A DNA stretch of 22,389 nucleotides. It comes from a virus. Both the position numbers and the translations under genes were made by a program. The notes below the pieces were generated by a model. The model did no database searches. It saw only the letters and a program-made list of their open reading frames with translations, and had not been told where the DNA came from. The stretch covers positions 1-22,389 of IMG/VR virus record IMGVR_UViG_3300031974_004092. One strand, 5' to 3'. Below are positions 1 through 21,573 of the stretch, one piece after another (position 1 is the first letter of the stretch; the number at the start of each line of letters is the position of its first letter).

Positions 1-1135
1 TAAGCTCTGCAGGATCCAAGAGCTGTGACGGTAAGTCCTTGTCAATGCTTCTGAATAAATCTTCCCAGTCGCGCTGAATTTTTCGTGCAGAGTCGTATTC
101 TGCATTGTTTCGTTTAATTTCTTGTATTCTTCGCTCAATTTCATCTTGCTGTTCTCTCGCTTCTTCGACTTTCTGAGATTCTGTATCAATTAATCCTTGC
201 TTAAAAGAACTATCAACAGATTGCTCGCAAGTCGGACAATGATCTCCTAATTTCTCTAATTTATCTAATAGGCGTTTTGACCCCGTTGCGGATTGTTGTA
301 ACTTACCCATCTCTGCCTGCAAGCTATCATAAGATTCTTTTGCAGTAATTTCACAAGATCTCGCCTCATCAATTTTTATCTTACTTAATAAATCTTTGAA
401 AGTATTATTCTGAGAAATCTTTTTATTTTTCTCAGAGATATTTTTAATTTCAATCATAAGAGTGGCGAGCTCTTGTTCGTCTTCTACCGTTTCAATAGAA
501 ATATTTTCTATTGGCAGTATGGATGTATCACTCAATTTGTTATCATGCAACCATTTTTCTATCGTTGCTGTTTTGGACTCAATTGAGTTTAAATTGAAAG
601 AAGACTTTCTTGCTTCCTCTTTAAACAACTCAAAAAGTTTTACATAGTGCTCTAGATGGAGAAGATCAATAAGAAACTTTTTGCGGTTCGTATCTGTTGC
701 AGTAAGAAATTGTAAACTGCTATTTGTGTTTTGGTATACCAACTGAGAGAAGGTTTTAAAGTCGATTCCAATAATATCTTGGAGTGTCTTGTATGTATTG
801 GTCGCTGTATGAGAACTAATATCTTCTCCATTTTCCAACAAGCGAAGCTTAATACTAGACTTGCGATCAATAATGACATCATAGCGTTTCTCATCTTTTG
901 TAAACTCAAGGTGTATATGATAACCGTCATTTACATATCTGTTTGGTATATCTGCTTTTTTGATTCCTTTGGAATTTTTGTTATACAGAGCTTCTTCTAT
1001 AATTAACGGTATGGAAGATTTACCCATGCCGTTAGTGCCAATAAGTTGAGTTACTGTGTTACTTTGTAAATCTAGCTCATTGTCTGCTCCGTAGCTGAAA
1101 CAATTACTCCATTTCAATTTTTGAAGCGTAATCAT
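1..1135 (-). CDS. sbcC: SbcC/Rad50-like recombination nuclease ATPase subunit (T4 gp46-like), 3' end cut by window edge
   Basis: Reading from ATG at 1135 the frame stays open to the left edge, giving 378 codons of a longer protein. Walker A is GTNGMGKS at residues 33-40, inside the usual SMC/Rad50 N-terminal start (KWSNCFSYG). A long charged coiled-coil-like stretch follows and contains a CPTC zinc hook at residues 300-303, where Rad50/SbcC proteins dimerise. The C-terminal Walker B/signature lobe lies outside the window. The start overlaps the end of the gp47-like gene by 32 bases, the classic 47-46 arrangement. The family pairs with SbcD/Mre11 to process DNA ends during recombination and replication, and in T4 also helps degrade host DNA. 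Family assignment is firm; host-DNA degradation here is inference. Confidence 0.93.
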   Translation of the reverse strand, partial: MITLQKLKWSNCFSYGADNELDLQSNTVTQLIGTNGMGKSSIPLIIEEALYNKNSKGIKKADIPNRYVNDGYHIHLEFTKDEKRYDVIIDRKSSIKLRLLENGEDISSHTATNTYKTLQDIIGIDFKTFSQLVYQNTNSSLQFLTATDTNRKKFLIDLLHLEHYVKLFELFKEEARKSSFNLNSIESKTATIEKWLHDNKLSDTSILPIENISIETVEDEQELATLMIEIKNISEKNKKISQNNTFKDLLSKIKIDEARSCEITAKESYDSLQAEMGKLQQSATGSKRLLDKLEKLGDHCPTCEQSVDSSFKQGLIDTESQKVEEAREQQDEIERRIQEIKRNNAEYDSARKIQRDWEDLFRSIDKDLPSQLLDPAEL

Positions 1136-2063
1136 TAAATATTCCTACTATATCCTTCACTTTTGGCTCAGGTATTTCTAAAATGTAAGTTAGATACTCT
1201 ATAAGCTCTTCAGCAATAGTCATTTCTTTTGCTAATTCTAGCACTGATTCAGAACTTCTTTTTACTACTTTTTTGTCAAGTAATTCGCTGTTCTTTACAG
1301 TAGCAAGCTCTTGAATATCCCCTTCTATTTCATAAATCGTATGATGGTAGTCTGTGGGCAACATCTCACTTGGGTCTGTTACTGTCTTACGAATAAGCTG
1401 TGGTAGTTCAAAAGCATCCCACATCCAAGACCAATCATTTGGATTTATTAAAAGGTAGCCGGTGCTGACCTCATTTCTATGAAACGAAGTTGTCATAGGG
1501 CTGCCTGGGTATACGATATTACGTTGAGTATTGCTATGAGCGTGAAGATCGCCTGCAAACACTACGGGGAAGTCCTCAAATCTGTCTAAGTCCACCTCTG
1601 GCTTGACGTGTGGAGGTATTTCGCCGCGAACGTGTGTAAACAATGGCTTCTTCGGATCAAACAATTCAATGGAGTTCTTTCGATGCAAATCTGCATATGG
1701 AAGCACTCCAAACCCAAAATCATTATCGTAATATGACATATCGACTACTTTTACTAGCGGATTAATGTCTCTTGTTACTTGCTTTAATTGTGTAAAAAAT
1801 GTTTTGTTTTTCTTAGTAGCTTCGTGATTACCGTCATAGATGAGTGTGGGAATCTGCACTTTACGAATAAACGCAAAGTACAGTTCCAACTCTTCCATGT
1901 TCGGCAGACGGTCAAATAAATCACCACCAATAACGTGCATATTACACTGCTTTTCGAGACTATGAACTTGCTCGAAAAACATTTTGTAGCGATTAGTAGC
2001 CCACTCACGAGGTACATTCTTTTGCCCTAGCTTAATGTGCCAGTCTGCCGTAAATAAGATCAT
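1104..2063 (-). CDS. sbcD: SbcD/Mre11-like metallophosphoesterase nuclease subunit (T4 gp47-like)
   Basis: A 319-residue protein with the calcineurin-like phosphoesterase motifs in order: DWH (D7, H9), GGDLFD (D48, D51), GNHE (N79, H80), TH (H144) and GDLHAH (171-176), which bind the two catalytic metals. The C-terminal part (after about 230) is helical and charged, as expected for the Rad50-binding region. Its ATG overlaps the stop of the ssDNA-binding protein gene as ATGA, so translation is probably coupled, and its 3' end overlaps the gp46-like gene by 32 bases. It should act with that subunit as an ATP-dependent end-processing nuclease in recombination-dependent replication. Length and motifs fit a complete gene. 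Confidence 0.94.
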   Translation of the reverse strand: MILFTADWHIKLGQKNVPREWATNRYKMFFEQVHSLEKQCNMHVIGGDLFDRLPNMEELELYFAFIRKVQIPTLIYDGNHEATKKNKTFFTQLKQVTRDINPLVKVVDMSYYDNDFGFGVLPYADLHRKNSIELFDPKKPLFTHVRGEIPPHVKPEVDLDRFEDFPVVFAGDLHAHSNTQRNIVYPGSPMTTSFHRNEVSTGYLLINPNDWSWMWDAFELPQLIRKTVTDPSEMLPTDYHHTIYEIEGDIQELATVKNSELLDKKVVKRSSESVLELAKEMTIAEELIEYLTYILEIPEPKVKDIVGIFNDYASKIEME

Positions 2064-2686
2064 CCGATGTTGAACTCATCTTCCAAGGATTCATCAATAT
2101 CGCCCGCTGCATCTTCACGAATCTCATCGAGAAGAGTCTTCTGGGCGTCTGGTGTAGGACGAGGCATAACATCGTCCATTGACTTTAAGTCTGCAATAGC
2201 TGACATCTCGCTTTCGCTCAAAGCACGCTGCTTGCACTTCAATACTTGTAGCTGATACTCTACATTGTAAGGTAAAGGTCCAGTCTTTACACGCTTGAAC
2301 TTAACGTCCCAGCCTGTCTCTGGATCAGTAGGATCACCCAGATCTTCTGCTGCTGTAAGAATTGCTTCAAACAACTTCTTCTTGAGGTTGATGATTTTTA
2401 CTTCACCACCATCAATGCACTGCATAGCGTAGCTCCAGCCACACTTGAGGTCGGGGTAGTACTCACGAACCCAATCTTTTTCAAGATTGTTAAAACGCTC
2501 TTCGTTACGATCAAACGATAAACACTCAAAGGGAATGTTCTTACCGTTTTTGCCTTCGAGCCAGTAAACGTATCGAGCGAGAACATCTCCTACGAGACGA
2601 ACTTCGTTGTCTCCGTCACGATATGAGTATGAAGTAATAGATGATTTTTTAGCGCCACCTGCCGCTTTGTTAAATGATAATGCCAT
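2060..2686 (-). CDS. Probable single-stranded DNA-binding protein (gp32-like)
   Basis: A 208-residue protein with a basic, flexible N-terminus (KAAGGAKKSS), a central core with Cys and aromatic residues (WLEGKNGK, CLSFDR, YPDLKC) and a beta-rich stretch (WDVKFKRVKTG, EYQLQVLKC), ending in a very acidic tail (DIDESLEDEFNIG). A basic N-terminus, OB-like core and acidic C-terminal tail are typical of replicative SSBs such as T4 gp32, whose tail recruits partner proteins. I recognise the sequence style from SSBs annotated in marine phages, but have no alignment. The start overlaps the preceding stop by one base (TAATG) and its stop overlaps the gp47 start, placing it in a recombination operon. 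SSB is inference from architecture and context. Confidence 0.75.
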   Translation of the reverse strand: MALSFNKAAGGAKKSSITSYSYRDGDNEVRLVGDVLARYVYWLEGKNGKNIPFECLSFDRNEERFNNLEKDWVREYYPDLKCGWSYAMQCIDGGEVKIINLKKKLFEAILTAAEDLGDPTDPETGWDVKFKRVKTGPLPYNVEYQLQVLKCKQRALSESEMSAIADLKSMDDVMPRPTPDAQKTLLDEIREDAAGDIDESLEDEFNIG

Positions 2687-3087
2687 TAGTGTATATCCTT
2701 TTTATTGACTTCTTCATACTTAAAGTATAATCTATCCTTTTTAATATGAAGTAGGCTGTTGTCTTTAAATAATTCTCGATCTAGTTCACAAAGAAGAAGG
2801 TCAAGAGTTTTGTCCCCAGTTGCTAAATAGTCCGCAAGCGAACGTAAAGAAGCCAACGCAACATACTGGGCTATGTCGCGAAAGCTGTGTTTATATGAGT
2901 GGTATAGAAGTATATCAGGATGAACTAAGAAACAGCTCCCCGAGAAGTCAAGATTAGCAAACTTAAAGATTTTATCGTGTTTATTACGCGGTATTTCTTT
3001 GTTTACTAATAATTTTATGACAAGATATATGGACGAAGGTGTTCCCTTAGTTACTTCAAATATCTTATTCCAATCATATAACAACAT
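2686..3087 (-). CDS. Hypothetical protein, first gene of the SSB-gp47-gp46 unit
   Basis: An unrecognised protein of up to 133 residues: a first half with hydrophobic segments (SSIYLVIKLLV, GSCFLVHPDILLYH), a helical middle (QYVALASLRSLADYLATG) and a charged C-terminus (YFKYEEVNKKDIH). No catalytic motif is evident. The 3' end is fused to the SSB start by TAATG. The 5' end is odd: the ATG at 3087 directly abuts the -10 hexamer of the promoter at 3088-3127, so a transcript from that promoter would begin inside or after the start codon. Either this gene is translated from read-through mRNA, or a start farther in is used; no good Shine-Dalgarno site was seen for a later start. By position it may take part in recombination or replication. 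Confidence 0.7.
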   Translation of the reverse strand: MLLYDWNKIFEVTKGTPSSIYLVIKLLVNKEIPRNKHDKIFKFANLDFSGSCFLVHPDILLYHSYKHSFRDIAQYVALASLRSLADYLATGDKTLDLLLCELDRELFKDNSLLHIKKDRLYFKYEEVNKKDIH

Positions 3088-3127
3088 ATTATACTCTACT
3101 TTTAACCATTTGTCAAGAACTGTTTTT
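3088..3127 (-). promoter_or_regulatory. Sigma70-type promoter with A-tract (family member 1)
   Basis: On the minus strand: an AAAAAC A-rich block and GTTC lead into TTGACA (3116-3111), 17 bases of spacer, then TATAAT (3093-3088). It matches seven other junction promoters in this window. It would drive the recombination unit (unknown gene, SSB, gp47, gp46). The -10 touches the ATG of the downstream gene. Confidence 0.85.
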
Positions 3128-3134
3128 CTACGCT

Positions 3135-4430
3135 TCAGAGCTGTTGAATGGAATAACCTTGTTTCATATAGTATCCCATTCTGTTAGAAGCCTGTCGTTG
3201 GGCTGTTTTGCCTTTTAAGTGAATATCAATAATCACCGGATCGCGTTTATTATCATGTTTCCTAACAACCCTTCCGATAAGCTGGGTAAGTAGTGGTTCA
3301 TTATTAATAGGAGTGGCCAAGATAAGGCAAGAAAGAGTGTTAACCGATATTCCCTCACTAAAAATAGCTTGAGTTCCGTAAAGTATGTTTTTAGTTCCAT
3401 GTAAAATCTCGTCTATTAGTGTTTCTCTGTCTTCATGCGCTACTTCACCCGTAACACATATGGAATTTTCACCAGTCAGTTCGGCGCAGCTTTTCAAAAA
3501 GTGAACTCGATCGGACACAACGAGCACTTTATGTCCTTTCGCTGCATATGCAGACGCCAACATTGCTACGGAGTGTCGATATTCGTCATTATTTGCGATT
3601 GCATTGACTCGTTTAGCCCAAGGAATATTTGCCCCGTCTGGAAAGCGCACTTCTGACCGATAAATGTGTATTTTCGGCGTTAAAAAGTTTTCTTTTGGCG
3701 GTTTGAAAATATTCGGACTGAAGTAGTCACGAAAAACTACGTGCTTTCCATCTTTGCGCTCAATTGTCCCAGACAAGCCAATCTTATATCGAGCATGGCT
3801 GGTATCAATAATTTTAGCGAAAGTGGGAGAGGAGACGTGATGCATTTCATCTAAAATAATCGTGCCAAACTCTTTCCGAATTTTATCAATGTTTCTATAA
3901 AGAGTTTGGGTATTACCAATACAAATAGGGCTATCGGTGTCAAAACTCCCGCTACCAATAATACCAGGTCTAATTCCATAAACTTTTTCCACTTCTTTTG
4001 CCCACTGATTTCGTAGTGGGACTGTGTGTGTAACCACAAGTGTTTTCTGTCCGAGTTTTCCCGCAATTGCGAGACCTGTAAATGTTTTACCCCAGCTCAC
4101 CCAAGCGTTGATAATACAGTTATCATCCAAGCTGTCATAGACCTCTTGTTGACTTGGCCGTAGCTCAAACGCAAATTTTGGAAAATCGGCAGGAATATTC
4201 AGACGCTTCTCTACGATATCGTAGCCGTCTGGAATAAGGTCTGTTCGTCCGATTGGTATGGATACCAGATTTTCGCGCACCCGTTGCAGATTCTTGATGA
4301 TCTGTGGAGGGTCGTTTGGGTTTTGTGTTGGTATTTTATAGGTGAGTTCGTCCGCGAGCTTTTTCTTCAACTCTGGAGTCACTTCCATAAAAATACGATT
4401 ACTTAATACCGCTTTCATAATTGTCTGCAT
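3135..4430 (-). CDS. uvsW: UvsW-like superfamily 2 DNA helicase
   Basis: A 431-residue SF2 helicase. RPSQQE (91-96) is the Q-like motif, AWVSWGKT (109-116) motif I, DEMHH (194-198) motif II (DExH), SGT (220-222) motif III, and QLIGRVVR near the C-terminus motif VI with arginine fingers. The ATP-binding loop is unusual, with Ala for the first Gly and SWGKT in place of GSGKT. Order, length and N-terminal extension fit the T4 UvsW/RecG-like helicases that remodel forks, unwind R-loops and help switch replication from origin- to recombination-dependent. The start at 4430 overlaps the alternative oxidase gene by 32 bases; an ATG at 4418 is an alternative. It is the last gene of the long block starting at the 11575 promoter. 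Confidence 0.9.
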   Translation of the reverse strand: MQTIMKAVLSNRIFMEVTPELKKKLADELTYKIPTQNPNDPPQIIKNLQRVRENLVSIPIGRTDLIPDGYDIVEKRLNIPADFPKFAFELRPSQQEVYDSLDDNCIINAWVSWGKTFTGLAIAGKLGQKTLVVTHTVPLRNQWAKEVEKVYGIRPGIIGSGSFDTDSPICIGNTQTLYRNIDKIRKEFGTIILDEMHHVSSPTFAKIIDTSHARYKIGLSGTIERKDGKHVVFRDYFSPNIFKPPKENFLTPKIHIYRSEVRFPDGANIPWAKRVNAIANNDEYRHSVAMLASAYAAKGHKVLVVSDRVHFLKSCAELTGENSICVTGEVAHEDRETLIDEILHGTKNILYGTQAIFSEGISVNTLSCLILATPINNEPLLTQLIGRVVRKHDNKRDPVIIDIHLKGKTAQRQASNRMGYYMKQGYSIQQL

Positions 4431-4983
4431 ACCTATGGTTTAAAATACTGTGAGTGCGTTCATCTTCGCGAATACAATGCAACATATCTCGTAGTGTTGC
4501 AGTGCCTGGTAGCCGGTAATATTCAATGGCAGCAAGAGGTGCTCGCACATTCTCTATATGCCCTTCGTCTATTTGTTTAATATAGTCTGTGTAGCTTATT
4601 ACGGCCTCTTCCTCAAAGTAGCCAATCATGCGATGTGCAGTTGTCTGCGAAATCATGTAAAGTGTAAAGTAAAATATTGAAAACAATATCTGTGCTACAA
4701 GAATTATGCCTTTTTCTACTGTAGTAGGCTTCGTTATGTGTAGCACAAATATTAAATGTTTTCGTTCGTTTTCTGCTTCTTCAAGCATATGGTGTATTTT
4801 AGTCCCGTAACCCTTTTTGAGAGTACGAAGACTTGCAAAATGAGTGAGCATTCCCGCAATCATGCCGGGCACACCCGCTACGGTCTCCAGAACTACTGCT
4901 CGATGACCATATCTCTCACGAAAGAACATATCGGCTGTAAACCGAAAGAACTTTGTCATAAATTTTGCAAAAAAATCACTCAT
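4399..4983 (-). CDS. aox: Alternative oxidase (diiron ubiquinol:oxygen oxidoreductase)
   Basis: A 194-residue protein with the signature set of the alternative oxidase family: LETVAGVPGM (E33), AENERKHL (E73, H76), FEEEAVISYT (E124-126, Tyr131) and REDERTH (E175, H178). These provide the four Glu and two His that hold the diiron site, plus the conserved Tyr. The AENER and VPGM forms resemble mitochondrial/proteobacterial AOX rather than the plastid/cyanophage PTOX form. The family oxidises ubiquinol and reduces oxygen to water without pumping protons, lying on the inner face of the cytoplasmic membrane. I chose ATG 4983 over 5007 because GAGGAAA lies just upstream of it and it overlaps the lipoprotein stop by only 8 bases. 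It is complete but N-terminally short. Neighbours are a lipoprotein and isocitrate lyase upstream and a helicase downstream. Confidence 0.93.
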   Translation of the reverse strand: MSDFFAKFMTKFFRFTADMFFRERYGHRAVVLETVAGVPGMIAGMLTHFASLRTLKKGYGTKIHHMLEEAENERKHLIFVLHITKPTTVEKGIILVAQILFSIFYFTLYMISQTTAHRMIGYFEEEAVISYTDYIKQIDEGHIENVRAPLAAIEYYRLPGTATLRDMLHCIREDERTHSILNHRYADNYESGIK

Positions 4984-5173
4984 TAGTTTCCTCATTGTAT
5001 AGGACACACCATAGTCGGGTTCTGTCCTCTGTGTAACATATCATACTACCATAGTACGGCCTACATACGTCTACAGGCTCTATTGTTGATTTATATTCTA
5101 TACAATCTTTATCTTCTTGCGTTGTAACACATCCCCCAAGAAGAATTACCGTTAATAATACATTAAGTTTCAT
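4976..5173 (-). CDS. Small lipoprotein between isocitrate lyase and alternative oxidase
   Basis: A 65-residue protein beginning with Lys, a hydrophobic stretch and the lipobox LGGC (Cys15), so it should be exported, lipidated and anchored to a membrane. The mature part is about 50 residues and holds four more Cys, which could form disulfides in the periplasm. GGAG lies just upstream of the ATG, in the 10-base gap after the isocitrate lyase stop, and the 3' end overlaps the alternative oxidase start. I do not recognise a family. Placement between two metabolic genes suggests it arrived with them or supports their function at the membrane; a spanin-like lysis role is possible but no partner is visible. 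Confidence 0.8.
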   Translation of the reverse strand: MKLNVLLTVILLGGCVTTQEDKDCIEYKSTIEPVDVCRPYYGSMICYTEDRTRLWCVLYNEETNE

Positions 5174-5183
5174 TCTCCAAGTC

Positions 5184-6413
5184 CTAGAACTGTGCTGTTT
5201 CTGTTGAACCCTTGAGCGCTTCGGTAGAACTCCCTAACGCCTTGGTAATTTCGTCAAAATACCCCACACCTACTTCTCGCTGGTGGCGAGTTGAAGTGTA
5301 TCCGTATTGTTCTGCTGCAAACTCCGCTTCTTGCAGGGTTGAGTATGCCAACATTCCGTCACTTTTATATTTACGTGCAAAATCAAATACTGCCATATTA
5401 GTCGAATGAAAGCCTCCAAGAGTGATAAACTGGAACTTGAACCCCATTTTACCTAACTCATGTTGAAAATCACGAAGTTCCGCATCTCCAGGAATGGACT
5501 GTCTCCAGTTAAAGCTCGGAGAGCAGTTATACGCTAACATTGCGTCGGGATTAGACCCTTTGACTGAATCAGCAAAACGCCGGGCGTCTTTGAGACATGG
5601 GGTGCTGGTTTCGCACCACACGAGGTCTGCGTATTGGGCATAGGCGGCACCTCGCTCACATCCCATTTCAAGACCCCCGTGGATTTGCCAGAACCCGTCA
5701 GATGTTCTGTTTTTGATGCTTGCTCCTGCCTGAGAGCTTCTACGTATCCACTTGGTATCCGCTGAACAATGATCGCTGCTGAGTAGCTGTGCGCTCTCTG
5801 CGTCTGTTCTCGCAATGATGAGTGTCTCTGTTCCACAAACGTCAGCAGCGAGACGAGCAGCGTTAAGATTCCTAATGGCATCACTAAGAGGAATAAGAAC
5901 TTTCCCTCCGAGATGTCCACACTTTTTGGCGGAGGCGAGTTGGTCTTCAAAGTGGACTCCTGCCGCTCCTGCTTCGATGAGATTTCGTGCCAGCTCATAG
6001 CTATTTAATACTCCCCCAAACCCTGCTTCCGCATCTGCCACGATAGGCGCGAAATCAAAGCCGTTCTCCGTCTCTGCATATTCGATCTGGTCTTGTCTGC
6101 GAAATGCGTTATTGATGTTACGCACCACAGACGGAACCGAATCGACTGGATAGAGAGATTGATCTGGATATACTTCATTAGACGAGTTGGCCGCAGCAGC
6201 AACTTGCCAACCTGAGCAATAGATAGCTTGAAGGCCGGCTTTAACGTGCTGCACAGCTTGCTGTCCATTGTAAGCGCCAAAGGTGTTAATGTATAAGTTT
6301 TCACTAAACAACTTCCTTAGCTTTACAGCCATGTCTCGAGCAATAGTGTGCTCAATTTTTTGTGTCCCCTGCAACTTTCTTACGGTCTCGGGGGTGTAGT
6401 CTCGTTTTTTCAT
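5184..6413 (-). CDS. aceA: Isocitrate lyase
   Basis: A 409-residue protein closely matching bacterial isocitrate lyase along its whole length. It cleaves isocitrate to glyoxylate and succinate, the first step of the glyoxylate shunt. Visible motifs: SGWQVA (67-72), VADAEAGFGG with Mg-site Asp127 and Glu129, the active-site loop KKCGHLGGK (163-171, catalytic Cys165), ARTDAE (R202), WCETSTP (266-272), YNCSPSFNW (295-303), FITLGGFH (Thr331) and the C-terminal ending ALKGSTETAQF that closes over the site. All catalytic residues I can place are intact. Compared with the roughly 430-residue bacterial enzymes it lacks about 25-30 N-terminal residues. Its ATG overlaps the PhoH stop (ATGA). No malate synthase is in the window. 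Expected in the host cytoplasm as a tetramer. Confidence 0.97.
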   Translation of the reverse strand: MKKRDYTPETVRKLQGTQKIEHTIARDMAVKLRKLFSENLYINTFGAYNGQQAVQHVKAGLQAIYCSGWQVAAAANSSNEVYPDQSLYPVDSVPSVVRNINNAFRRQDQIEYAETENGFDFAPIVADAEAGFGGVLNSYELARNLIEAGAAGVHFEDQLASAKKCGHLGGKVLIPLSDAIRNLNAARLAADVCGTETLIIARTDAESAQLLSSDHCSADTKWIRRSSQAGASIKNRTSDGFWQIHGGLEMGCERGAAYAQYADLVWCETSTPCLKDARRFADSVKGSNPDAMLAYNCSPSFNWRQSIPGDAELRDFQHELGKMGFKFQFITLGGFHSTNMAVFDFARKYKSDGMLAYSTLQEAEFAAEQYGYTSTRHQREVGVGYFDEITKALGSSTEALKGSTETAQF

Positions 6414-7069
6414 AAACCTAATTCCGTTTTTGCGGTTATGTAAGATTTAACAAAATTACTGCGAACGATGTCTTGAATCTCAAAGTCTACGAGATCAAAG
6501 TTGTCCATCGCTTTCAGTATCCTAATAAAATCCTTCAGTCCGTTTGTTCGTAGATCAGACTGTCGGAAGTCCCCACAGAAGATTACTCTACAACCTTGGC
6601 CTACTCGAGTAATAATTGAGTCCAACTCATGAAAAGTCATATTCTGGCACTCATCAATAAGTATTGTAGCATTTCGTAGAGTCACACCTCGCACAAACGA
6701 AGTAGTCATAAAATGCACTAAACCTTTGGTTTTAAGTATCTCGTAAGCATCGCCTCGTTGAAACAGCTCAATACAAATATCTTTGTAAGGCTCTTCATAG
6801 ACGTGTGCTTTTTCTTTCTCATTCCCCGGCAGAAAACCGATATCTCGTGTAGAGACGGCACTGCGAATAATTACTAGTTTTTGGTACTCTTGCTTTGCCA
6901 TGTCATCAAATGCTAAATAACATGAGATAAAAGTCTTGCCTGTTCCTGCTACTCCGTGTAGTACCAGGTTTTTCTCGCTCTCAAATGCTTTGAGCTGGTT
7001 TTGTGTTAAAGGGTCAATTTGTTGCAGGTCGAGGTTAGCGCCTGCGAGGGTTTTACTGCGTTTTCCCAT
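6410..7069 (-). CDS. phoH: PhoH-like P-loop ATPase
   Basis: A 219-residue protein with Walker A GVAGTGKT (39-46), the PhoH-type STRDIGFLPG segment (73-82), Walker B ILIDE (136-140), and a GDFRQSDL motif that corresponds to the sensor region. PhoH proteins are RNA/DNA-associated ATPases, very common in marine phages; their exact role during infection is unsettled. The gene is full length for the phage type. It lies 6 bases after the preceding gene's stop and shares ATGA with isocitrate lyase, so the metabolic enzyme is probably translationally coupled to it. In some bacteria phoH responds to phosphate starvation, but no Pho box is evident here. Confidence 0.95.
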   Translation of the reverse strand: MGKRSKTLAGANLDLQQIDPLTQNQLKAFESEKNLVLHGVAGTGKTFISCYLAFDDMAKQEYQKLVIIRSAVSTRDIGFLPGNEKEKAHVYEEPYKDICIELFQRGDAYEILKTKGLVHFMTTSFVRGVTLRNATILIDECQNMTFHELDSIITRVGQGCRVIFCGDFRQSDLRTNGLKDFIRILKAMDNFDLVDFEIQDIVRSNFVKSYITAKTELGL

Positions 7070-7075
7070 AATTCC

Positions 7076-7570
7076 TTATACCTTTCTGCGAGTGTCCTTT
7101 AAAGGTTCTTCAGAGTACTCGTATAATGTCCACGGTTGTGCTCCATAGTATAAAATGCCAGCATACCGTATTTCGTCGGCGGGAGGTCGAGGAACCTTAA
7201 AAGGAAACCGAACTCCCTGCAAGTAAAGAAGACTAAAGCCCTCTTTTAAACTTACATTTTTGATACGATGATATTTCAAAGAGCACCACTGAGTTTTCTC
7301 ATAGGTGAATGGTATACCGTTTGTATCAATAAAACATTTATCTGAATTTTTTATAAGACCACTAAAACTATCATACTGCTTCTTTAGCGCAAGCAAATTA
7401 CGATGAGGTGTTTGTAGTCTGCGGAGACCTAGTGTATCCCCGCTCTGATTTTTGTCGTCTACAATCTGGCCGTCTAAAAAGAGAAGACCGTCGGCCTTGC
7501 TCCAGTTATCAGACGGCATTTCATAGATTGGAAACTGTATCCTATTGAGTTTTCTATACGTCAGTGCCAT
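7076..7570 (-). CDS. Conserved hypothetical protein downstream of DNA polymerase
   Basis: I take ATG 7570 (MALTYRK) as the start, overlapping the polymerase stop by 17 bases; upstream codons in this frame run antisense-like through polymerase sequence and look non-native. The result is about 164 residues. Features seen: a motif-like core KADGLLFLDGQIVDDKNQ and GDTLGLRRLQTP, then YHRIKNVSL and RFPFKVPRPPADEIRY, and a basic tail (KDTRRKV). I have seen similar wording in unnamed marine-phage proteins, but know no function. Its fixed position between polymerase and PhoH suggests a replication-linked role. The start has no strong Shine-Dalgarno, consistent with coupling to the polymerase gene. Confidence 0.78.
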   Translation of the reverse strand: MALTYRKLNRIQFPIYEMPSDNWSKADGLLFLDGQIVDDKNQSGDTLGLRRLQTPHRNLLALKKQYDSFSGLIKNSDKCFIDTNGIPFTYEKTQWCSLKYHRIKNVSLKEGFSLLYLQGVRFPFKVPRPPADEIRYAGILYYGAQPWTLYEYSEEPLKDTRRKV

Positions 7571-9821
7571 ACATTTTAACGAACTTGCCCATGGAGTAGT
7601 CTTCATCAATTTCAAAGTCACATCCAACGGGAGCACCTGGTATAATAAGTCCCCTGTCCATCTGGACAAAGTGTAGTAGCTTTTCGCAATAATGGTCAAT
7701 TTCCTCCTCTGGAACTTCTGCAAGAATCGAGTCGTGCACAAGTGCAAAGATTCGAGACTTCATTTTATTCGCTTTGAGATATTCACCCATATCTATTGCG
7801 CCAAGTAGGTTAATATCACTAGCAGCGGACTGAACCAAAAAATTAAGACCAGAACGAATGCTATGCGAGCGGATCGCCGCGTCGGAACTTGCAACATTTG
7901 GGAGCCTTCTTTTCCTACCAAAGCTCGAATAAACGAACCCATTATGTTCAATAAATTTTTGATTATCATCAATCCATGCCTTTAACTTATGAAACGCTTT
8001 GAAGTAGTCTGAAATAACTTCACTAGCTTCTTGCTTAGAGAAAAATTTTCCGCTGTCTTTTGTAACTTGCTCACTGATCTTTGCAGGACCAGCACCATAC
8101 ATAATACCAAAAGTTACTGCTTTTGCTGCTTGACGACGATCAGGATAAAGTTCGGCTACTTCTTCTAATTCACAAGGCAGTTTGAATACCTTATGAGCAA
8201 TTGTGCTGTGAAAATTACCACCACTACGAAACACGTCCATAAGTGCTTCATCTTTTGCTAGAACTGCTGCAACATATACTTCTGCTGTAGTCAAGTCCAT
8301 AGCAACGATCTTGTGTCCTGGAGCTGCTTTGATACACCCTTTTACTGTAGGGTTATCACGAGGCAGCTGTTGCATATTGAGTTTACCACTAGAGCTAAGA
8401 CGGCCACTAGTAGTGCCATGGAGGTTAAAACCCGTCCTAAGTCGAGAATCTCGATCCAATTGAGGTATGATCTTGTCCAGATAAGTATTTTTGATTTTAG
8501 ATTTTTGTCGGATATCCAATATCCGTTTTGGTACATCCGATTGAAGGCTGAGTTCCTTAAGCACTTCCGCATCAGTAGAATCCGCACCCGTACCTGTCTT
8601 CTTTCCAGTTGGTCGCAGGCCCAAGTAATCAAACATAAGGCTACGAAGCTGAACAGTGCTATTAGGATTAAAAGATTTTCCATTTAATTCTTCAAACCTC
8701 CTTATATTGTCGTTTTCATATAAGGCAGTAATGGCTTCATCAATATCATCTTGCATAGCGCTTTGGGCTAAGTATAGACGCTTTTTATCAAAGGGAACGC
8801 CATTATCTTGCGTATCAATTAGAAAACGAGTGCCTGGTATAAGAATATTATCATATACCCACTTAAGTTTTGGATTCTGCTTAATCTTTACAAATTTTTC
8901 GTATAACAGAAAAGTTGCTAAAGCATCCATAGCAGCGTAAGTCTTCATTACATCAAAGGGAATATCTCCCCAGTTAAATTGATCTTTGAGTATGCCATGC
9001 TCTTTACGATAGTTATCAATCCACTCATACATTGGCTTCTCGTAGTCGCCAAATGGAGTGAACTTGAGTGTAAGTTGCTTGAGGCCATGCCCTCCGGGAT
9101 TCTCGTCTATGAGGTAATGGAGCAACATGGTGTCTTCGAAGTTTGGAAACTTGAATCCAAAGTGATACTCAAAGAACGCCATATCGAACTTCGCATTGTG
9201 AAAGACTACTGATTTCTTTGTAAATAGTTCCTGAAGGAGCCCTTCAGTAGTCTCATCAAAACAGTCAGTGTCGATATAAGCACCGCGCTTATCATTATAG
9301 GCAAGACTAATGCCAAGCATATAACCGTCGCGAGGGTAGAGCCCAGTTGTCTCAGAATCGAGTGCAACATATCCACATTCTTCTGCGATGGCAGCCCGAA
9401 TAAACTCATTTGCTTCCTCCGTGTCTTGTATTCCGAAAGCAACGCTGTCGTCGATGACTACATCTTCAATCTCGCCAGCAATATACTTGTGAATACTTTC
9501 TACGCTTTGCTCCCACGTCTTGCGTGCTTCAGGTTTGAATGCGAGCATAGCAGGGTTGATAACAGGCAAAAACTTGCCATCTACTTTCTTCCCAGAGAAC
9601 TCTGTAACAGAGTTTTGCTTTGTATAGTATTTCATAGCGTCAGACCCTACAAGAATAATCCAGTCATACTCGTCTGGATCCATCTGCAAGTCTACATCTC
9701 GCTTTAATACTTTTGTAATTGTAGGGTCAGAGCACAACTGAAACTGGTCAAATTCAAAATCGAACTCTTTCTTAAAATTGGTTTTACTACTTTTCGTTTC
9801 TACTAGGGCAACGTTAGCCAT
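7554..9821 (-). CDS. polA: Family A DNA polymerase with 3'-5' exonuclease domain
   Basis: A 755-residue replicative polymerase. The exonuclease has DSETTG (D155, E157), HNAKFD (N209, D213) and YAAMD (Y295, D299). The polymerase domain has motif A as MDLTTAEVY (D509) instead of DYSQIELR, motif B R563-K567-F571 with GIMYG (matching E. coli R754/K758/F762, so a Phe762 type), and motif C VHDS (H696, D697) with Ser replacing the usual Glu. No 5'-3' exonuclease domain is present. The first about 120 residues include ILVGSDAMKYYT and FLPVINPAML, which resemble the second half of a family 4-like uracil-DNA glycosylase fold (see findings). The start overlaps the primase stop by 8 bases. It should be the phage replicase. 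Confidence 0.96.
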   Translation of the reverse strand: MANVALVETKSSKTNFKKEFDFEFDQFQLCSDPTITKVLKRDVDLQMDPDEYDWIILVGSDAMKYYTKQNSVTEFSGKKVDGKFLPVINPAMLAFKPEARKTWEQSVESIHKYIAGEIEDVVIDDSVAFGIQDTEEANEFIRAAIAEECGYVALDSETTGLYPRDGYMLGISLAYNDKRGAYIDTDCFDETTEGLLQELFTKKSVVFHNAKFDMAFFEYHFGFKFPNFEDTMLLHYLIDENPGGHGLKQLTLKFTPFGDYEKPMYEWIDNYRKEHGILKDQFNWGDIPFDVMKTYAAMDALATFLLYEKFVKIKQNPKLKWVYDNILIPGTRFLIDTQDNGVPFDKKRLYLAQSAMQDDIDEAITALYENDNIRRFEELNGKSFNPNSTVQLRSLMFDYLGLRPTGKKTGTGADSTDAEVLKELSLQSDVPKRILDIRQKSKIKNTYLDKIIPQLDRDSRLRTGFNLHGTTSGRLSSSGKLNMQQLPRDNPTVKGCIKAAPGHKIVAMDLTTAEVYVAAVLAKDEALMDVFRSGGNFHSTIAHKVFKLPCELEEVAELYPDRRQAAKAVTFGIMYGAGPAKISEQVTKDSGKFFSKQEASEVISDYFKAFHKLKAWIDDNQKFIEHNGFVYSSFGRKRRLPNVASSDAAIRSHSIRSGLNFLVQSAASDINLLGAIDMGEYLKANKMKSRIFALVHDSILAEVPEEEIDHYCEKLLHFVQMDRGLIIPGAPVGCDFEIDEDYSMGKFVKMYGTDV

Positions 9822-10647
9822 ATAATTTATTCCTCAGTTTATCTACTTGAGTTTGAGCCAGTGCTCCCGCATCTAAGTTTTTGTCGCCAAAAGCAATATT
9901 GCGAGTTTGAAGTCCTACTGCTTCGCACAGCTCTTTTATTCTCTCAGAACCTTTGCGTCCTGCTTCATCATTATCAAGAAATACATCAATAGTATCAATG
10001 CCCTGCACTGATAATACCTGTAGTTTCTCTTCTGTTACATTCTTCACTCCAAAACAACACACAGCGTTTGTGAGTCCTTTGTCGTGTAAATTAATTACGT
10101 CAAAAATACCTTCTACCAGAATAATACTACTTTGTAGTGGTTCTACAACAGGAAACAAGGGTAGCTTTGCTCCAGGAGGAGAGTTTAGATACTTTGGTAT
10201 TTGGTCTGTCTGTGTGCGGGACTGAAATGCTATTATGCGCCCAGTGCGGTCGCGAATAGGAAAGCATATTCTTCCCACAAAGTCTTTTCCATGGTGCAGA
10301 AACGCTTCAAAACTACGATAAGTCTCGGGGCGAATGTTTCTCCAGTTACCTACGTATGGAGTTGCTTTTTCTGGTAGTTGTAGTCCCACGCTTTCTGCTT
10401 TCTTCTCTCTTATTTTCTTTTGCAACATCTGCTTACGAAGTTGCATCTTATTTGCTTTTTCACCAAAGTGAGTGAATAAGTTTCCTTTATACTCACAAGA
10501 GAAGCAGTTAAATATTCCGGTAATTTGGTCTACCCGCATACTTGGATTACGGTCAGGATGTTCTGGATTGAAACAACTGACTACGAAGTCTTTGCCTTTG
10601 GGTATATAAGGAACATTTTTAGATATTAATAAATCTTCTACGTTCAA
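9814..10647 (-). CDS. dnaG: DnaG-type primase (zinc finger plus TOPRIM)
   Basis: A 277-residue primase. The N-terminal zinc-binding set is C25, H30, C48, C51 (CFNPEH, CFSC), used for template recognition. The catalytic TOPRIM domain carries LVEGIFDV (E179) and FLDNDEAG (D225, D227), which bind metal. It lacks the helicase domain found in T7 gp4; the helicase is a separate gene at 11616-12968. It is shorter than bacterial DnaG, lacking the helicase-binding C-terminal domain, as is usual in phages. Its ATG overlaps the stop of the acidic upstream protein by 4 bases, and its stop overlaps the polymerase start, so primase and polymerase are expressed together. Confidence 0.94.
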   Translation of the reverse strand: MNVEDLLISKNVPYIPKGKDFVVSCFNPEHPDRNPSMRVDQITGIFNCFSCEYKGNLFTHFGEKANKMQLRKQMLQKKIREKKAESVGLQLPEKATPYVGNWRNIRPETYRSFEAFLHHGKDFVGRICFPIRDRTGRIIAFQSRTQTDQIPKYLNSPPGAKLPLFPVVEPLQSSIILVEGIFDVINLHDKGLTNAVCCFGVKNVTEEKLQVLSVQGIDTIDVFLDNDEAGRKGSERIKELCEAVGLQTRNIAFGDKNLDAGALAQTQVDKLRNKLYG

Positions 10648-10949
10648 TAGTCTTCATCCACGCCAAAGCCAGCAGACGCAAGAGCGTCTCCGTCCCAATC
10701 GGTGAGAAAGTCATCTCCATCATCGTAGTCATCAAAGTAATCTGGCACTTCTTCACCAGAGCCATGCAATACTTCTTCTACTACAGTTTGAGTATACTGG
10801 TAGTAATCTGCATGTTCGTCATCAAAGAGATGAAAGTATTTTGACAGACGAGCAAGAGTAACGTCTGCGGCTTGGTAATCGCCTACATCCATATCTCGCT
10901 CAAGTATATCAAATAACTGTGTAATCTTTGGTAGTAATCTGCTGTTCAT
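10644..10949 (-). CDS. Acidic hypothetical protein between cytochrome c and primase
   Basis: About 101 residues from the ATG at 10949, which overlaps the cytochrome stop as ATGA; an upstream in-frame start at 11021 would run inside the cytochrome gene and looks non-native. The N-terminal part is helical (LLPKITQLFDILERD, ADVTLARLSKYF), and the C-terminal third is extremely acidic (DYFDDYDDGDDF and a final GVDEDY). Acidic tails like this occur in DNA-mimic or SSB-like proteins, but no family is recognised. It is coupled at both ends, to the cytochrome upstream and the primase downstream, and so is part of the replication operon. Confidence 0.8.
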   Translation of the reverse strand: MNSRLLPKITQLFDILERDMDVGDYQAADVTLARLSKYFHLFDDEHADYYQYTQTVVEEVLHGSGEEVPDYFDDYDDGDDFLTDWDGDALASAGFGVDEDY

Positions 10950-11254
10950 TTTGCTGGAAATCCCTCTTGAACAAAGACTCCTATAGTTCCAATTTGGCCG
11001 TCTGTTAAGCTCTGCGCCCAAGGAATCATCATAGCAGCTTGAGGGCCATCTTTGTGTCCCATCTTGTAGTGGAGTAGCTTGTTAATGATGTCGTCGGCAG
11101 ACTGGCCTGCAAGAGTTGGTCCAACCCCGCCTTGGCCCATAGCACCATGACAAGTGCTACACATAGCCCAAGGCTGTCGAATATTCTCAAAGCGGTCTTC
11201 TGCAGTAGCCACGGAAGTGGCGACAAGTAGTGTTGTTAATAATAGTGTTTTCAT
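10946..11254 (-). CDS. Exported monohaem class I c-type cytochrome
   Basis: A 102-residue protein with a Sec signal peptide (hydrophobic run LLLTTLLVATSVATA, predicted cleavage before EDRF) and one CxxCH haem site, CSTCH (C32, C35, H36). GVGPTLAGQS (44-52) and an AAMMIPWAQSLTDGQI segment with Met75/Met76 supply the usual class I Gly-Pro loop and axial Met, similar to c4/c5/c553-type domains. Haem would be attached in the periplasm by the host maturation system, and the protein would shuttle electrons to a terminal oxidase or other acceptor. Its ATG shares ATGA with the upstream small gene, and its stop shares ATGA with the acidic gene. A c-type cytochrome inside a phage replication operon is unusual. 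Confidence 0.93.
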   Translation of the reverse strand: MKTLLLTTLLVATSVATAEDRFENIRQPWAMCSTCHGAMGQGGVGPTLAGQSADDIINKLLHYKMGHKDGPQAAMMIPWAQSLTDGQIGTIGVFVQEGFPAK

Positions 11255-11544
11255 CGTCTCATCCTTGCAATATCTTTCATGTGTTGTTCGTCGATAACCG
11301 GGACGGCATTACTTTTATGCATTGTTCCGATTCCTTTAACCAGTCTTCCGGTATACTGCATCGGGTCCACCCGAGGGGCAACTCCAACTGTGTCGGGGGC
11401 ACTTCGGTACTCATGCTCGGAGTCTCGTCGATAAGGTTTTGGAGAGTTTGATCGAACTCCCTTGAAAGTTGGTCTAGTGCGGCGAGTAGTCTCTTTCTTT
11501 CGGCCACACGCTGTGTGATTGATTGATCCATATATCATTCCCAT
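11251..11544 (-). CDS. Conserved small phage protein (TMHKSNAVPV family)
   Basis: About 97 residues from ATG 11544 (MGMIYGSINH); an ATG two codons later is equally possible. GGGGA lies 10 bases upstream. The protein is basic in the middle (GRKKETTRRTR) and ends with MQYTGRLVKGIGTMHKSNA and a final DIARMRR. I recognise this ending from many unnamed phage proteins, which is why I prefer this frame over an overlapping frame of 84 codons. Function unknown. It is the first gene after the promoter at 11575-11614, with a leader of about 25 bases, and shares ATGA with the cytochrome gene. Confidence 0.8.
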   Translation of the reverse strand: MGMIYGSINHTACGRKKETTRRTRPTFKGVRSNSPKPYRRDSEHEYRSAPDTVGVAPRVDPMQYTGRLVKGIGTMHKSNAVPVIDEQHMKDIARMRR

Positions 11545-11574
11545 AAATAAAAAATCCCCATGAATTGAAGTATA

Positions 11575-11614
11575 ATTATACAGCAATCCACAGGGAATGT
11601 CAAGAACTATTTTT
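11575..11614 (-). promoter_or_regulatory. Sigma70-type promoter with A-tract (family member 2)
   Basis: Minus strand: AAAAATAGTTC then TTGACA (11603-11598), 17-base spacer, TATAAT (11580-11575). Perfect consensus hexamers. It lies directly after the helicase stop and is the only clear promoter before the 8-kb block of cytochrome, primase, polymerase, PhoH, isocitrate lyase, alternative oxidase and UvsW-like genes. Confidence 0.92.
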
Positions 11615-11615
11615 A

Positions 11616-12968
11616 TCAGAGGTCGTCAATATCCTCACCAGTTTTATGGGAAGAAGCCTCTTTCTCGGAAGGTGTCTGAGCTGTGTCAGGACCAATCCTA
11701 AGGGACTCCCAGTCCATAACTGAGGTAAAAGATTTCATACTAGCAGCTCGCATCTTTACACAATTAAATGTGATGCACTCGTCCTCTTGTTCCCAAGTTT
11801 CTAGTGCGTAAGCTGCGTCTGCCGCATCTAATATGCCCTTTGCGAAGCGTGCTTCGCCGGTTGCATCCGTTTGGTAAGGAGAAAATACAGTGCAGTCATA
11901 CTCTTGTGCCATGCTCTTCAATGCTTTTGATACTTCAATCTGCTCCGTCCAGTCGTACTGGCCACCCCTTGAAGGAGCTACAGAACGCTTGACTTGGTTG
12001 ATATAGTCAACAATAATTACCGCTGCGTCAATCTTTCGGACTTTCTTGTCTAACTCTGACCGTATCTTAGCCAGTGTGAGACTTGGATCGTAAATTACAT
12101 CCAACTGCTGAGTCGGGAGAAGCTCGTGAGTTGTAGATAATGTGCGATGAAACTCTGAAAAATTACGATGTTCTCTATATTCTTCCAATCTACGCTGACC
12201 CTCGGTGTAACGGCTCGCCCACCAAGCTGCAACTTTTTCCCATTCGGTCACACTTAGATTTTGTGTTCTCAAACGGGAGAAAGGAACGGCAGTAGCGATC
12301 GAACAACATCGTTGCAATATTGAACGACTATCCATCTCAATAGTGAAATAAATAGCTGAACGGCCAGACTGAAATACATTGTTTGCAATATTTGCACAAG
12401 TTAATGACTTACCACTACCTCTGCGACCCCCGACAAGAACCAAGTCTCGTGGAGAGAACTTAATTTCATAGTCATAGTCTGCGTTGAGTCCAAGACCGAT
12501 ATACTTATCAATCTCTTCCGGTGGCTCGAATAACTCGATACGCTGCATACTCTCTTGTGGAACCTCCAAATCTACTTTGTCCTCGATATCGAGAACGATC
12601 TGATGAAGTTCTTGAACTGACTCTTCCGCAGTCGGAATGAGATCAGATTTGTCAACATACTTATCAAGAGCTGTTAATATCTCTTTCTGAGTATATTCAT
12701 TTTTGAGATACTCAAGCAGAACACCCGCATCTACATCCACATCATCCTGGGACTCTATGGCATAGATTTTATCACGCGTTGGAGCGTGGCGAGTGCTGAG
12801 CTTGAGATCGTCGAACGAAGGGAAGCTGTGAAAATTCTCACAATGTGAGTCAATGGCTTCATAAAGCAGGTGATACTCAGCGGGAAGATACTCTTTACGT
12901 AGATAGCTCCACGTTTCAAAGTCTCCCACAAGAACACACTGCTTGATTAAAGCACTAGATAAATTCAA
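11616..12968 (-). CDS. dnaB: DnaB-type replicative DNA helicase
   Basis: A 450-residue protein with a RecA-type C-terminal motor. Walker A is GGRRGSGKS (180-188), followed by AIYFTIEMDS (motif H1a), IIVDYINQVKR (Walker B/H2 region), QIEVSKALKSMAQEY and SPYQTD (H3), and a late QEDECITFNCVKMRAA (H4 region). The N-terminal 160 residues are helical and hold a partner-binding domain like T4 gp41/DnaB. It would form the hexameric 5'-3' helicase that works with the primase. The start is TTG at 12968, supported by GGGGGA a few bases upstream. It begins only 18 bases after a strong terminator, so it must rely on read-through or on processing. Confidence 0.94.
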   Translation of the reverse strand: MNLSSALIKQCVLVGDFETWSYLRKEYLPAEYHLLYEAIDSHCENFHSFPSFDDLKLSTRHAPTRDKIYAIESQDDVDVDAGVLLEYLKNEYTQKEILTALDKYVDKSDLIPTAEESVQELHQIVLDIEDKVDLEVPQESMQRIELFEPPEEIDKYIGLGLNADYDYEIKFSPRDLVLVGGRRGSGKSLTCANIANNVFQSGRSAIYFTIEMDSRSILQRCCSIATAVPFSRLRTQNLSVTEWEKVAAWWASRYTEGQRRLEEYREHRNFSEFHRTLSTTHELLPTQQLDVIYDPSLTLAKIRSELDKKVRKIDAAVIIVDYINQVKRSVAPSRGGQYDWTEQIEVSKALKSMAQEYDCTVFSPYQTDATGEARFAKGILDAADAAYALETWEQEDECITFNCVKMRAASMKSFTSVMDWESLRIGPDTAQTPSEKEASSHKTGEDIDDL

Positions 12969-12986: not shown

Positions 12987-13019
12987 AAAAGTCTGACCAC
13001 TACTAGAGTAGCCAGACTA
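12987..13019 (-). terminator. Intrinsic terminator after the SANT-like protein gene
   Basis: Minus-strand RNA folds into a 12-bp stem (AGTCTGGCTACT with AGTAGTGGTCAGACT, two G-U pairs) with a 5-base loop, followed by TTTTT. This is a textbook Rho-independent terminator, placed 20 bases after the stop of the multi-repeat protein gene and just ahead of the helicase gene. Confidence 0.9.
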
Positions 13020-13038
13020 CTTTACACACTAAGTGTGA

Positions 13039-20992: not shown

Positions 20993-21571
20993 TTAATTGC
21001 CACGTATCCTATCAAGTATATACTCTGGGTTTGTGTAGAGGTAAGGATCCTCTTTACAATTGTCTTCACGACCTTCTTCGATGAACCAGTCTTCGATGCT
21101 ACCATTGTCTACGATACAGGCGTATCTCCATGAACGACGACCAAAGCCAAGATTGTCTTTGTCTACAGTCATATTCATAGCATCTGTGAACTTGCAAGCA
21201 CCGTCAGGAATTACTTGAACGTGCTCAAGGTTATTTGCTTTCGCCCAAGCATTACATACAAATGCATCATTGACTGTCATACATACGATGCCAGTAATGC
21301 CTTCGTCGTAAAATACTCGTGCAAGTTGCTCAAAGGTAGGTAGTTGGTAGGTTGAACAGGTTGGCGTGAAAGCGCCTGGCAGGGAGAACATAAGAATACG
21401 CTCACCTGCAAAAATATCCCATGTATTTACGTCAAGCCACTCATACTGCTTTGTCTCTGGGTTAAATATTCGAGTGTGGAAAGTTACGGATGGAACCATC
21501 TCGGGCAATGCTCTCCAATACCCTGTTTCTTCATACTGATGTCGTTCGTGCTGCGTGCAATAAATTGCCAT
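20993..21571 (-). CDS. Peroxiredoxin (Prx5/AhpE-like thiol peroxidase)
   Basis: A 192-residue protein from ATG 21571, two bases after the lysozyme stop; the in-frame extension to 21670 lies within the lysozyme gene and looks non-native. The catalytic motif PGAFTPTC gives Pro65, Thr69 and peroxidatic Cys72, and RSWRY (146-150) supplies the conserved Arg. SVTFHTRIF, IVCMTVNDAFVCNAW and NMTVDKDNLGFG complete the Prx5-type fold. It should reduce hydrogen and organic peroxides in the cytoplasm using host glutathione/glutaredoxin or thioredoxin. No fused glutaredoxin domain is present. It may protect the cell against oxidants late in infection. It is an auxiliary metabolic gene next to lysis genes. 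Confidence 0.93.
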   Translation of the reverse strand: MAIYCTQHERHQYEETGYWRALPEMVPSVTFHTRIFNPETKQYEWLDVNTWDIFAGERILMFSLPGAFTPTCSTYQLPTFEQLARVFYDEGITGIVCMTVNDAFVCNAWAKANNLEHVQVIPDGACKFTDAMNMTVDKDNLGFGRRSWRYACIVDNGSIEDWFIEEGREDNCKEDPYLYTNPEYILDRIRGN

Positions 21572-21573
21572 TA

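What the first reader, a model, noticed from the sequence alone, without database searches (positions are those of the whole stretch)
3135..11614. Energy-metabolism and DNA-replication genes share one apparent 8-kb transcription unit
After the promoter at 11575-11614 I see no other clear promoter or terminator until 3127, and most junctions overlap. Cytochrome c, primase, polymerase, PhoH, isocitrate lyase, lipoprotein, AOX and UvsW-like helicase would be made together. This suggests the metabolic genes serve the genome-replication phase, when demand for nucleotides and energy is highest.
Basis: inference. Interest (0 to 1): 0.8.

Follow-up and report, generated by a model that had tools for sequence, protein, structure and literature searches.

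The report
Phage replication operon carrying respiration genes
A marine virus of bacteria appears to make three respiration and carbon-metabolism enzymes from the same message as its DNA-copying machinery, and related viruses show that the start of this message is fixed and shielded while the metabolic genes come and go.

Summary
The minus-strand sigma70 consensus promoter at 11603-11575 (12/12) is followed by no site of >=11/12 until 3116-3088, and by no convincing terminator. Relatives strengthen it: the start promoter is present in 50 of 52 contig clusters, the promoter after the helicase in 49 of 49, and junctions between them carry none (one exception in 51 at one junction).

The backbone is the T5-type replication array (D5, DnaB, primase, PolA, D10, SSB, SbcD, flap nuclease, RNR). 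ICL, AOX and cytochrome c are insertions without promoters of their own, placed into slots that most relatives leave empty.

Two corrections. First, the start promoter lies inside a conserved terminator hairpin whose 3' arm carries a Shine-Dalgarno-like motif for the first gene, so the unit looks insulated from upstream transcription. Second, nothing closes the unit at 3127: there is a booster promoter but no terminator, and in a near-identical longer contig the array runs about 16.9 kb to a strong hairpin after RNR beta.

Co-expression with early genes is likely, but sister phages carry ICL/AOX in other promoter units. The link to nucleotide and energy demand is untested. No transcript was measured.

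The parts
11545..11603 (-). Composite element: -35 11603-11598, hairpin 5' arm 11596-11584, -10 11580-11575 in the loop, 3' arm 11567-11555, U-run from 11554; 3' arm carries GGGGA (11559-11555), 10 nt before ATG 11544
   Evidence: (MFE -20.5 kcal/mol, z -5.5)
11251..11544 (-). first gene of the unit, small protein of unknown function (phrog_27048)
10946..11254 (-). periplasmic-type class I cytochrome c, CSTCH haem motif, signal peptide by eye
10644..10949 (-). small acidic protein, unknown
   Evidence: no family
9814..10647 (-). DNA primase (CHC2 zinc finger, Toprim)
7554..9821 (-). family A DNA polymerase, closest named relatives T5-like Vibrio, Enterobacter and Aeromonas phages (about 43-45% identity)
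7076..7570 (-). conserved T5-type gene between polymerase and D10 (phrog_4386)
6410..7069 (-). PhoH-like ATPase; present in only part of the relatives at this slot
5184..6413 (-). isocitrate lyase, full length, KKCGH motif
4976..5173 (-). 65-aa cysteine-rich lipoprotein-like protein, recurrent between ICL and AOX
4399..4983 (-). alternative oxidase, conserved di-iron motif residues
3135..4430 (-). T5 D10-type branch-migration helicase by position and family
3088..3116 (-). second promoter (12/12), same junction as T5 P31A/P31B; no terminator before it
2686..3087 (-). conserved T5-type gene (phrog_4258) whose ATG abuts the -10
2060..2686 (-). single-strand DNA-binding protein, D11 position
1104..2063 (-). 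SbcD-like (T5 D12) phosphoesterase
12988..13020 (-). terminator-like hairpin between D5 and DnaB
   Evidence: 42 of 43 clusters
11616..12968 (-). DnaB-like helicase, upstream neighbour of the unit, without a promoter of its own

Best explanation
The region is the middle of a T5-type early replication array. Host RNA polymerase with its main sigma factor starts at 11603-11575 and reads g11251, cytochrome c, a small gene, primase, PolA, g7076, PhoH, ICL, lipoprotein, AOX and the D10 helicase. It most likely runs on past a booster promoter at 3116-3088 into the SSB, SbcD, flap-nuclease and RNR genes. The start promoter lies inside a terminator hairpin. RNA arriving from the upstream lig-D5-DnaB unit would contain both arms and stop. 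RNA begun at the promoter contains only the 3' arm, passes, and exposes the GGGGA/GGGAG/AGGAG motif in front of the first gene. ICL, AOX, cytochrome c and the lipoprotein are promoterless cargo inserted with overlaps or short gaps, so they inherit early expression from this unit. Shown: sequence elements, their conservation, their covariation, and the insertion pattern. Inferred: actual transcripts, termination efficiency, timing, and any metabolic benefit.
For: Start promoter in 50 of 52 clusters; misses are L014 and the L057 cluster. Promoter after D10 in 49 of 49; PC4|LigA 28 of 28; LigA|LigB 33 of 33; internal junctions primase|PolA 0 of 62, PolA|g7076 0 of 66, g7076|PhoH 0 of 32, PhoH|D10 0 of 25, g7076|D10 1 of 51. 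Hairpin at the start: window z -5.5, 0 of 200 shuffles as good; 47 of 48 distinct sequences fold to <= -12 kcal/mol; own arms average -21.3, arms swapped between phages -13.4; the promoters after D10 and LigA show no such effect. Many different standard pairs occur per stem level. None of the other 7 window promoters has such a hairpin. An SD-like motif in the 3' arm followed by ATG within 12 nt occurs in 43 of 50 clusters, my count over one search's rows (48 rows matched, 5 of them only to TTG). Insertion pattern: PolA-g7076-(PhoH)-D10 in most relatives versus PhoH-ICL-(lipo)-(cytC)-AOX-D10. T5 has annotated promoters upstream of ligA, between ligA and ligB, before pol and after D10, and Ppol is early in vivo (PMC7472727). 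Contig L005 (3 mismatches in 13,631 bp) shows flap nuclease, RNR alpha and beta downstream and a -21.0 kcal/mol hairpin after RNR beta.
Against: No RNA data. Promoter strength and termination are judged by E. coli rules although the host is unknown. T5 keeps its promoter between primase and pol and has no embedded hairpin with U-run there, so timing is carried over from a non-identical promoter. The more distant relative L014 lacks the start element and keeps ICL-lipo-cytC-AOX in another unit. The -10 after D10 abuts the next ATG in 33 of 49 clusters (my count), which a simple leader model does not explain. The clusters share ancestry and are not independent trials.
Confidence: 0.8

Rival explanations
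1. Ordinary read-through: the unit has no real 5' border, and DnaB and upstream genes are cotranscribed with it; the hairpin is only a promoter-proximal coincidence.
For: DnaB has no promoter of its own (sigHTH|DnaB 0 of 43), so polymerase must enter DnaB by read-through past a terminator-like hairpin (42 of 43 clusters) and may also pass the next one.
Against: The hairpin is kept with compensating arms and a U-run in nearly all relatives, which chance overlap would not keep.
Confidence: 0.12
2. The metabolic genes are expressed from weak internal or non-sigma70 promoters and have timing of their own.
For: A phage-type promoter with another consensus would not be seen; the host is unknown; two 10/12 sites lie inside genes.
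Against: Those two sites are not conserved; gaps around the inserted genes are overlaps or 0-27 bp in most cases, up to 265 bp in some; no promoter of >=11/12 in any relative at these junctions.
Confidence: 0.08
3. Position in the replication unit has no functional meaning: the genes land wherever insertion is tolerated in early units. This is compatible with the transcription unit itself being real.
For: The same genes sit in two or three other places in sister phages; most of the AOX there belongs to a separate branch.
Against: T4-like contigs repeatedly show ICL beside replication genes, though the label T4-like was itself given by those genes.
Confidence: 0.4

Closest known systems
T5 early replication region (AY543070; ligA-ligB-D5-D6-pri-pol-T5.123-D10-D11-D12-D13-D14-D15)
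   Same: Gene order, strong sigma70 promoters before ligA, between ligA and ligB, and directly after D10; no terminator annotated between pol and D10
   Different: T5 has its unit promoter between primase and pol, no hairpin with U-run around it, a terminator after D11, and no ICL, AOX or cytochrome c among the annotated genes of the stretches read
PeSL, composite promoter-terminator motifs of T4-like phages (Arbiol 2010, Comeau 2014)
   Same: Early promoter combined with a stem-loop terminator, associated with gene shuffling (known here only from titles and a citing passage, PMC4503421, and recall; the two papers are not held)
   Different: T5-type phage; one fixed place instead of many mobile copies; 3' arm also carries an SD-like motif
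Cyanophage auxiliary metabolic genes expressed with nucleotide-synthesis genes (P-HM2, PMC5082946, passages read)
   Same: Metabolic genes alongside nrdA/nrdB, which are in the middle expression class there; a quinol oxidase (PTOX, of the AOX superfamily by recall) is discussed
   Different: Here a non-photosynthetic set: isocitrate lyase, AOX, cytochrome c
aceBA operon in a marine T4-like genome (PMC5332604, section 17 read)
   Same: Phage-borne isocitrate lyase
   Different: There with malate synthase and proposed for lysogeny; here with AOX, lipoprotein and cytochrome c inside a replication unit

Membership tests
T5-type (Demerecviridae-like) replication module | LigA-LigB-D5-DnaB-primase-PolA-D10-D11-D12 order | tested here: met
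T5-type (Demerecviridae-like) replication module | D5-like regulator | tested here: met
   phrog_323, 5.8e-47
T5-type (Demerecviridae-like) replication module | two-step DNA transfer with pre-early genes in terminal repeats | not testable with these tools
   record is a 22-kb stretch without the genome ends
PeSL-like composite promoter-terminator | consensus early promoter overlapping a stem-loop with U-run | tested here: met
PeSL-like composite promoter-terminator | many copies per genome that mediate shuffling (as recalled and as cited in PMC4503421) | tested here: not met
   only 1 of 8 window promoters; 77 of 117 embedded hits are at this junction (74 labelled, plus window, L122, L170), the rest mostly weak
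isocitrate lyase | full length with KKCGH signature and equivalog score | tested here: met
   NF011645 600.8 against cut-off 562; alignment
alternative oxidase | conserved E and ExxH di-iron motif residues | tested here: met
   PF01786 217.9 bits; invariant E33, E73/H76, E124-126, E175/H178; ligand roles recalled
class I cytochrome c | CxxCH motif and family score | tested here: met
   PF00034 25.7 against 21.3; c-type structures matched
polycistronic transcription unit | one RNA across the genes | not testable with these tools
   no RNA data

The most novel reading that the evidence does not exclude
Isocitrate lyase, a small lipoprotein, cytochrome c and AOX form a respiratory bypass cassette, exchanged between T5-like and T4-like marine phages. 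It is placed without promoters behind replication genes, so that succinate-driven quinol oxidation is switched on exactly with DNA and dNTP synthesis. A 60-nt element that is at once terminator, promoter and ribosome-binding site makes this switch depend on fresh initiation.
Probability: 0.35. Interest if true: 0.8.

Novelty: new variant of a known kind. Interest (0 to 1): 0.6.

Why it matters
It shows how a phage adds host-like respiration genes without building new regulation: it drops them into a promoter-defined unit that has been stable across a large marine phage group. The insulated start element is short, conserved and easy to test. If confirmed, it ties the timing of metabolic takeover to genome replication and gives a clear place to look for further cargo genes.

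Tried and rejected
Internal promoters: two 10/12 sites were checked in relatives and rejected as unconserved.

Structure counting on a MAFFT alignment of the start element (38 of the 46 distinct sequences; the 8 with other stems were left out) was dropped, because the two stem subfamilies align one base out of register; stem levels were counted from each sequence's own fold instead and arms were swapped as a control.

Megablast of the region against named phages gave no match. Cytochrome c has no match in named phages at 1e-3.

Viral contigs L015-L027 and L029 with AOX were not used as phage evidence: their AOX groups with bacterial (Porticoccaceae) AOX, so they may be host DNA. The promoter and hairpin counts use only clusters in which the named genes were found.

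The AOX tree is the quick tree; the careful one did not finish.

The host of the phage was not determined.

The claim that ICL in T4-like contigs lies near replication genes is partly circular, since those genes gave the label.

Literature: ten searches listed no paper that I recognised as describing ICL, AOX and cytochrome c together in a phage replication unit; the library is open-access only and most listed papers were seen as listing only.
Full report
WHAT IS THERE. The window is the whole of a 22,389-base virus record. All genes discussed lie on the minus strand. Pfam, PHROGs and NCBIfam give, in transcription order: PC4-like protein, LigA, LigB, D5-like regulator, DnaB, g11251, cytochrome c, g10644, primase, PolA, g7076, PhoH, isocitrate lyase, a 65-aa lipoprotein-like protein (no family), alternative oxidase, a D10-type helicase, g2686, an SSB and an SbcD-like phosphoesterase. 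Apart from the metabolic genes and PhoH this is the T5 order. Vibrio phage VspSw_1 and T5 itself show LigA-LigB-D5-DnaB-primase-pol-hypothetical-D10-hypothetical-D11-D12-D13-D14-flap nuclease, and PolA is about 43-45% identical to T5-like phages.

THE OBSERVATION. The minus strand has eight sites of at least 11/12 to TTGACA-N16..18-TATAAT and the plus strand none; Markov shuffles give 0.38 on average. The two that bound the claimed unit are perfect (3116-3088 and 11603-11575). Nothing of this quality lies between them over 8.5 kb. Two 10/12 sites inside genes are not kept in relatives. Terminator-like hits between them are weak and intragenic. Eight of ten junctions overlap (my reading of coordinates).

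COMPARATIVE TEST. 31 window proteins were searched in 180 loci, which fall into 118 clusters of non-overlapping contigs. Promoters of at least 11/12 occur at DnaB|g11251 in 44 of 44 clusters, D10|g2686 in 49 of 49, LigA|LigB in 33 of 33 and PC4|LigA in 28 of 28. They occur at primase|PolA in 0 of 62, PolA|g7076 0 of 66, g7076|PhoH 0 of 32, PhoH|D10 0 of 25, PhoH|ICL 0 of 7, ICL|AOX 0 of 13, AOX|D10 0 of 7, g11251|cytC 0 of 6, g10644|primase 0 of 32, sigHTH|DnaB 0 of 43 and g7076|D10 1 of 51. A few sites of this quality also lie inside genes of relatives, most often PolA (7 clusters). Taking every cluster with DnaB and enough downstream DNA, 50 of 52 have the start promoter; the misses are the distant relative L014 and the L057 cluster. 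Clusters are related to one another, so these are not independent trials.

THE START ELEMENT. The start promoter lies inside an inverted repeat followed by a U-run: 5' arm between -35 and -10, -10 in the loop, 3' arm and U-run after it. The window sequence folds at -20.5 kcal/mol, z -5.5. Of 48 distinct relatives 47 fold to -12 or lower, with mean -21.3; swapping arms between phages gives -13.4, whereas promoters after D10 and after LigA give no such difference. Two further junctions in that call lie in between: PC4|LigA -10.4 against -9.2, and g18664|g16243 -13.0 against -10.1, the latter without a U-run. Stem levels show many different standard pairs. The other seven window promoters have no such hairpin. 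In 43 of 50 clusters the 3' arm contains GGGGA, GGGAG, AGGAG or a similar motif with an ATG within 12 nt, the U-run being the spacer (five further rows match only to TTG and two have no match). In the short transcript the motif is still partly paired in many rows, but with weak energies of -0.9 to -5.7 kcal/mol. The simplest reading is an insulator: RNA from upstream has both arms and terminates, and its SD-like motif would be paired in any case; RNA begun here has only the 3' arm. This is inference from sequence.

THE END IS OPEN. At D10|g2686 a terminator-like hairpin was found in none of 49 clusters. Contig L005 is the same virus population (3 mismatches in 13,631 bases) and extends further: a 598-aa protein in the D13 position without a Pfam hit, a nuclease, a flap nuclease, RNR alpha and RNR beta, no further promoter of 11/12, and a 14-bp hairpin of -21.0 kcal/mol after RNR beta. 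So the insulated array is about 16.9 kb (L005 2029-18904) with one booster promoter. The downstream gene set is conserved in relatives. In 33 of 49 clusters the -10 of the booster promoter directly abuts the ATG of g2686 (my count over). Such a start would lie inside that gene, so RNA from this promoter probably serves the SSB gene onwards while g2686 is read from the longer RNA.

THE METABOLIC GENES ARE CARGO. Relatives have PolA-g7076-D10 or PolA-g7076-PhoH-D10; only the window group has ICL and AOX in this slot. Cytochrome c is present or absent between g11251 and g10644, and in L006 it sits between the lipoprotein and AOX. Sister T5-like phages have ICL after g20355 and AOX after lysozyme; L014 has ICL-lipo-cytC-AOX as a block in that early region. 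With at least 4.5 kb downstream of ICL available, AOX follows within 4.5 kb in 7 of 12 T5-like, 2 of 10 T4-like and 3 of 16 unassigned clusters. Phage AOX proteins of both backbones form one branch (SH-aLRT 98, quick tree, 25 rows) apart from 78 bacterial ones; L014 falls with the window group, the lysozyme-slot AOX elsewhere. The proteins look intact: ICL passes the equivalog cut-off, AOX keeps its motif residues, cytochrome c has CSTCH. Among named phage records AOX is found only in C48C1, which also has the closest ICL, 75% identical (the other ICL matches are at most 56% identical); there AOX lies between clamp and clamp-loader genes.

TIMING. In T5 all classes use host sigma70 RNA polymerase, and the promoter in front of pol is early: transcripts appear at 20 min and are gone after 30 min (PMC7472727, abstract passages and section 18). 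By homology of gene order the unit here is early. Whether the host behaves likewise is unknown.

MECHANISM OF THE ENZYMES (inference). ICL feeds succinate to succinate dehydrogenase and glyoxylate to glycine; AOX would re-oxidise quinol without proton pumping and so keep carbon flux going when membrane potential would limit it; the cytochrome may supplement a host oxidase. None of this was tested.

KNOWN RELATIVES. Composite promoter-terminator motifs are named for T4-like phages (PeSLs; seen only in a citing passage). Phage isocitrate lyase is in print (PMC5332604 section 17; PMC4053976 passages). Expression of metabolic genes with RNR is in print for cyanophages (PMC5082946 passages). The combination found here is a new variant of known kinds.

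Noticed in passing
window 13020-12988 and 12968-11616: DnaB has no promoter of its own and lies between two conserved terminator-like elements (42 of 43 clusters upstream, composite element downstream), so its expression must depend on read-through or antitermination.
   Followed up: partly
window 3093-3075: The -10 of the promoter after D10 directly abuts the ATG of g2686 in 33 of 49 clusters, so the predicted RNA start lies inside the gene.
   Followed up: partly
L040, L046, L073/L087, L081 downstream of ICL: Contigs without T5 replication genes also carry a lipoprotein-like gene just after ICL, followed by AOX or cytochrome c, as in the window: a possible shared cassette across phage types.
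   Followed up: partly
L163, L164, L168, L180 between PolA and helD10: The same slot carries other insertions (gaps of 1.7-2.3 kb; redoxin-like in L168, g20355-like in L180), suggesting a general cargo site.
   Followed up: no
L015-L027, L029: AOX contigs listed as viral whose AOX groups with Porticoccaceae; some may be bacterial DNA in the viral collection.
   Followed up: partly
L073:3627: A second well-formed terminator-embedded promoter (17-pair stem with U-run) upstream of ICL on a contig without T5-type replication genes.
   Followed up: no
window 20993-21670: Redoxin-family protein beside lysozyme; in sister phages AOX sits between these two genes.
   Followed up: no
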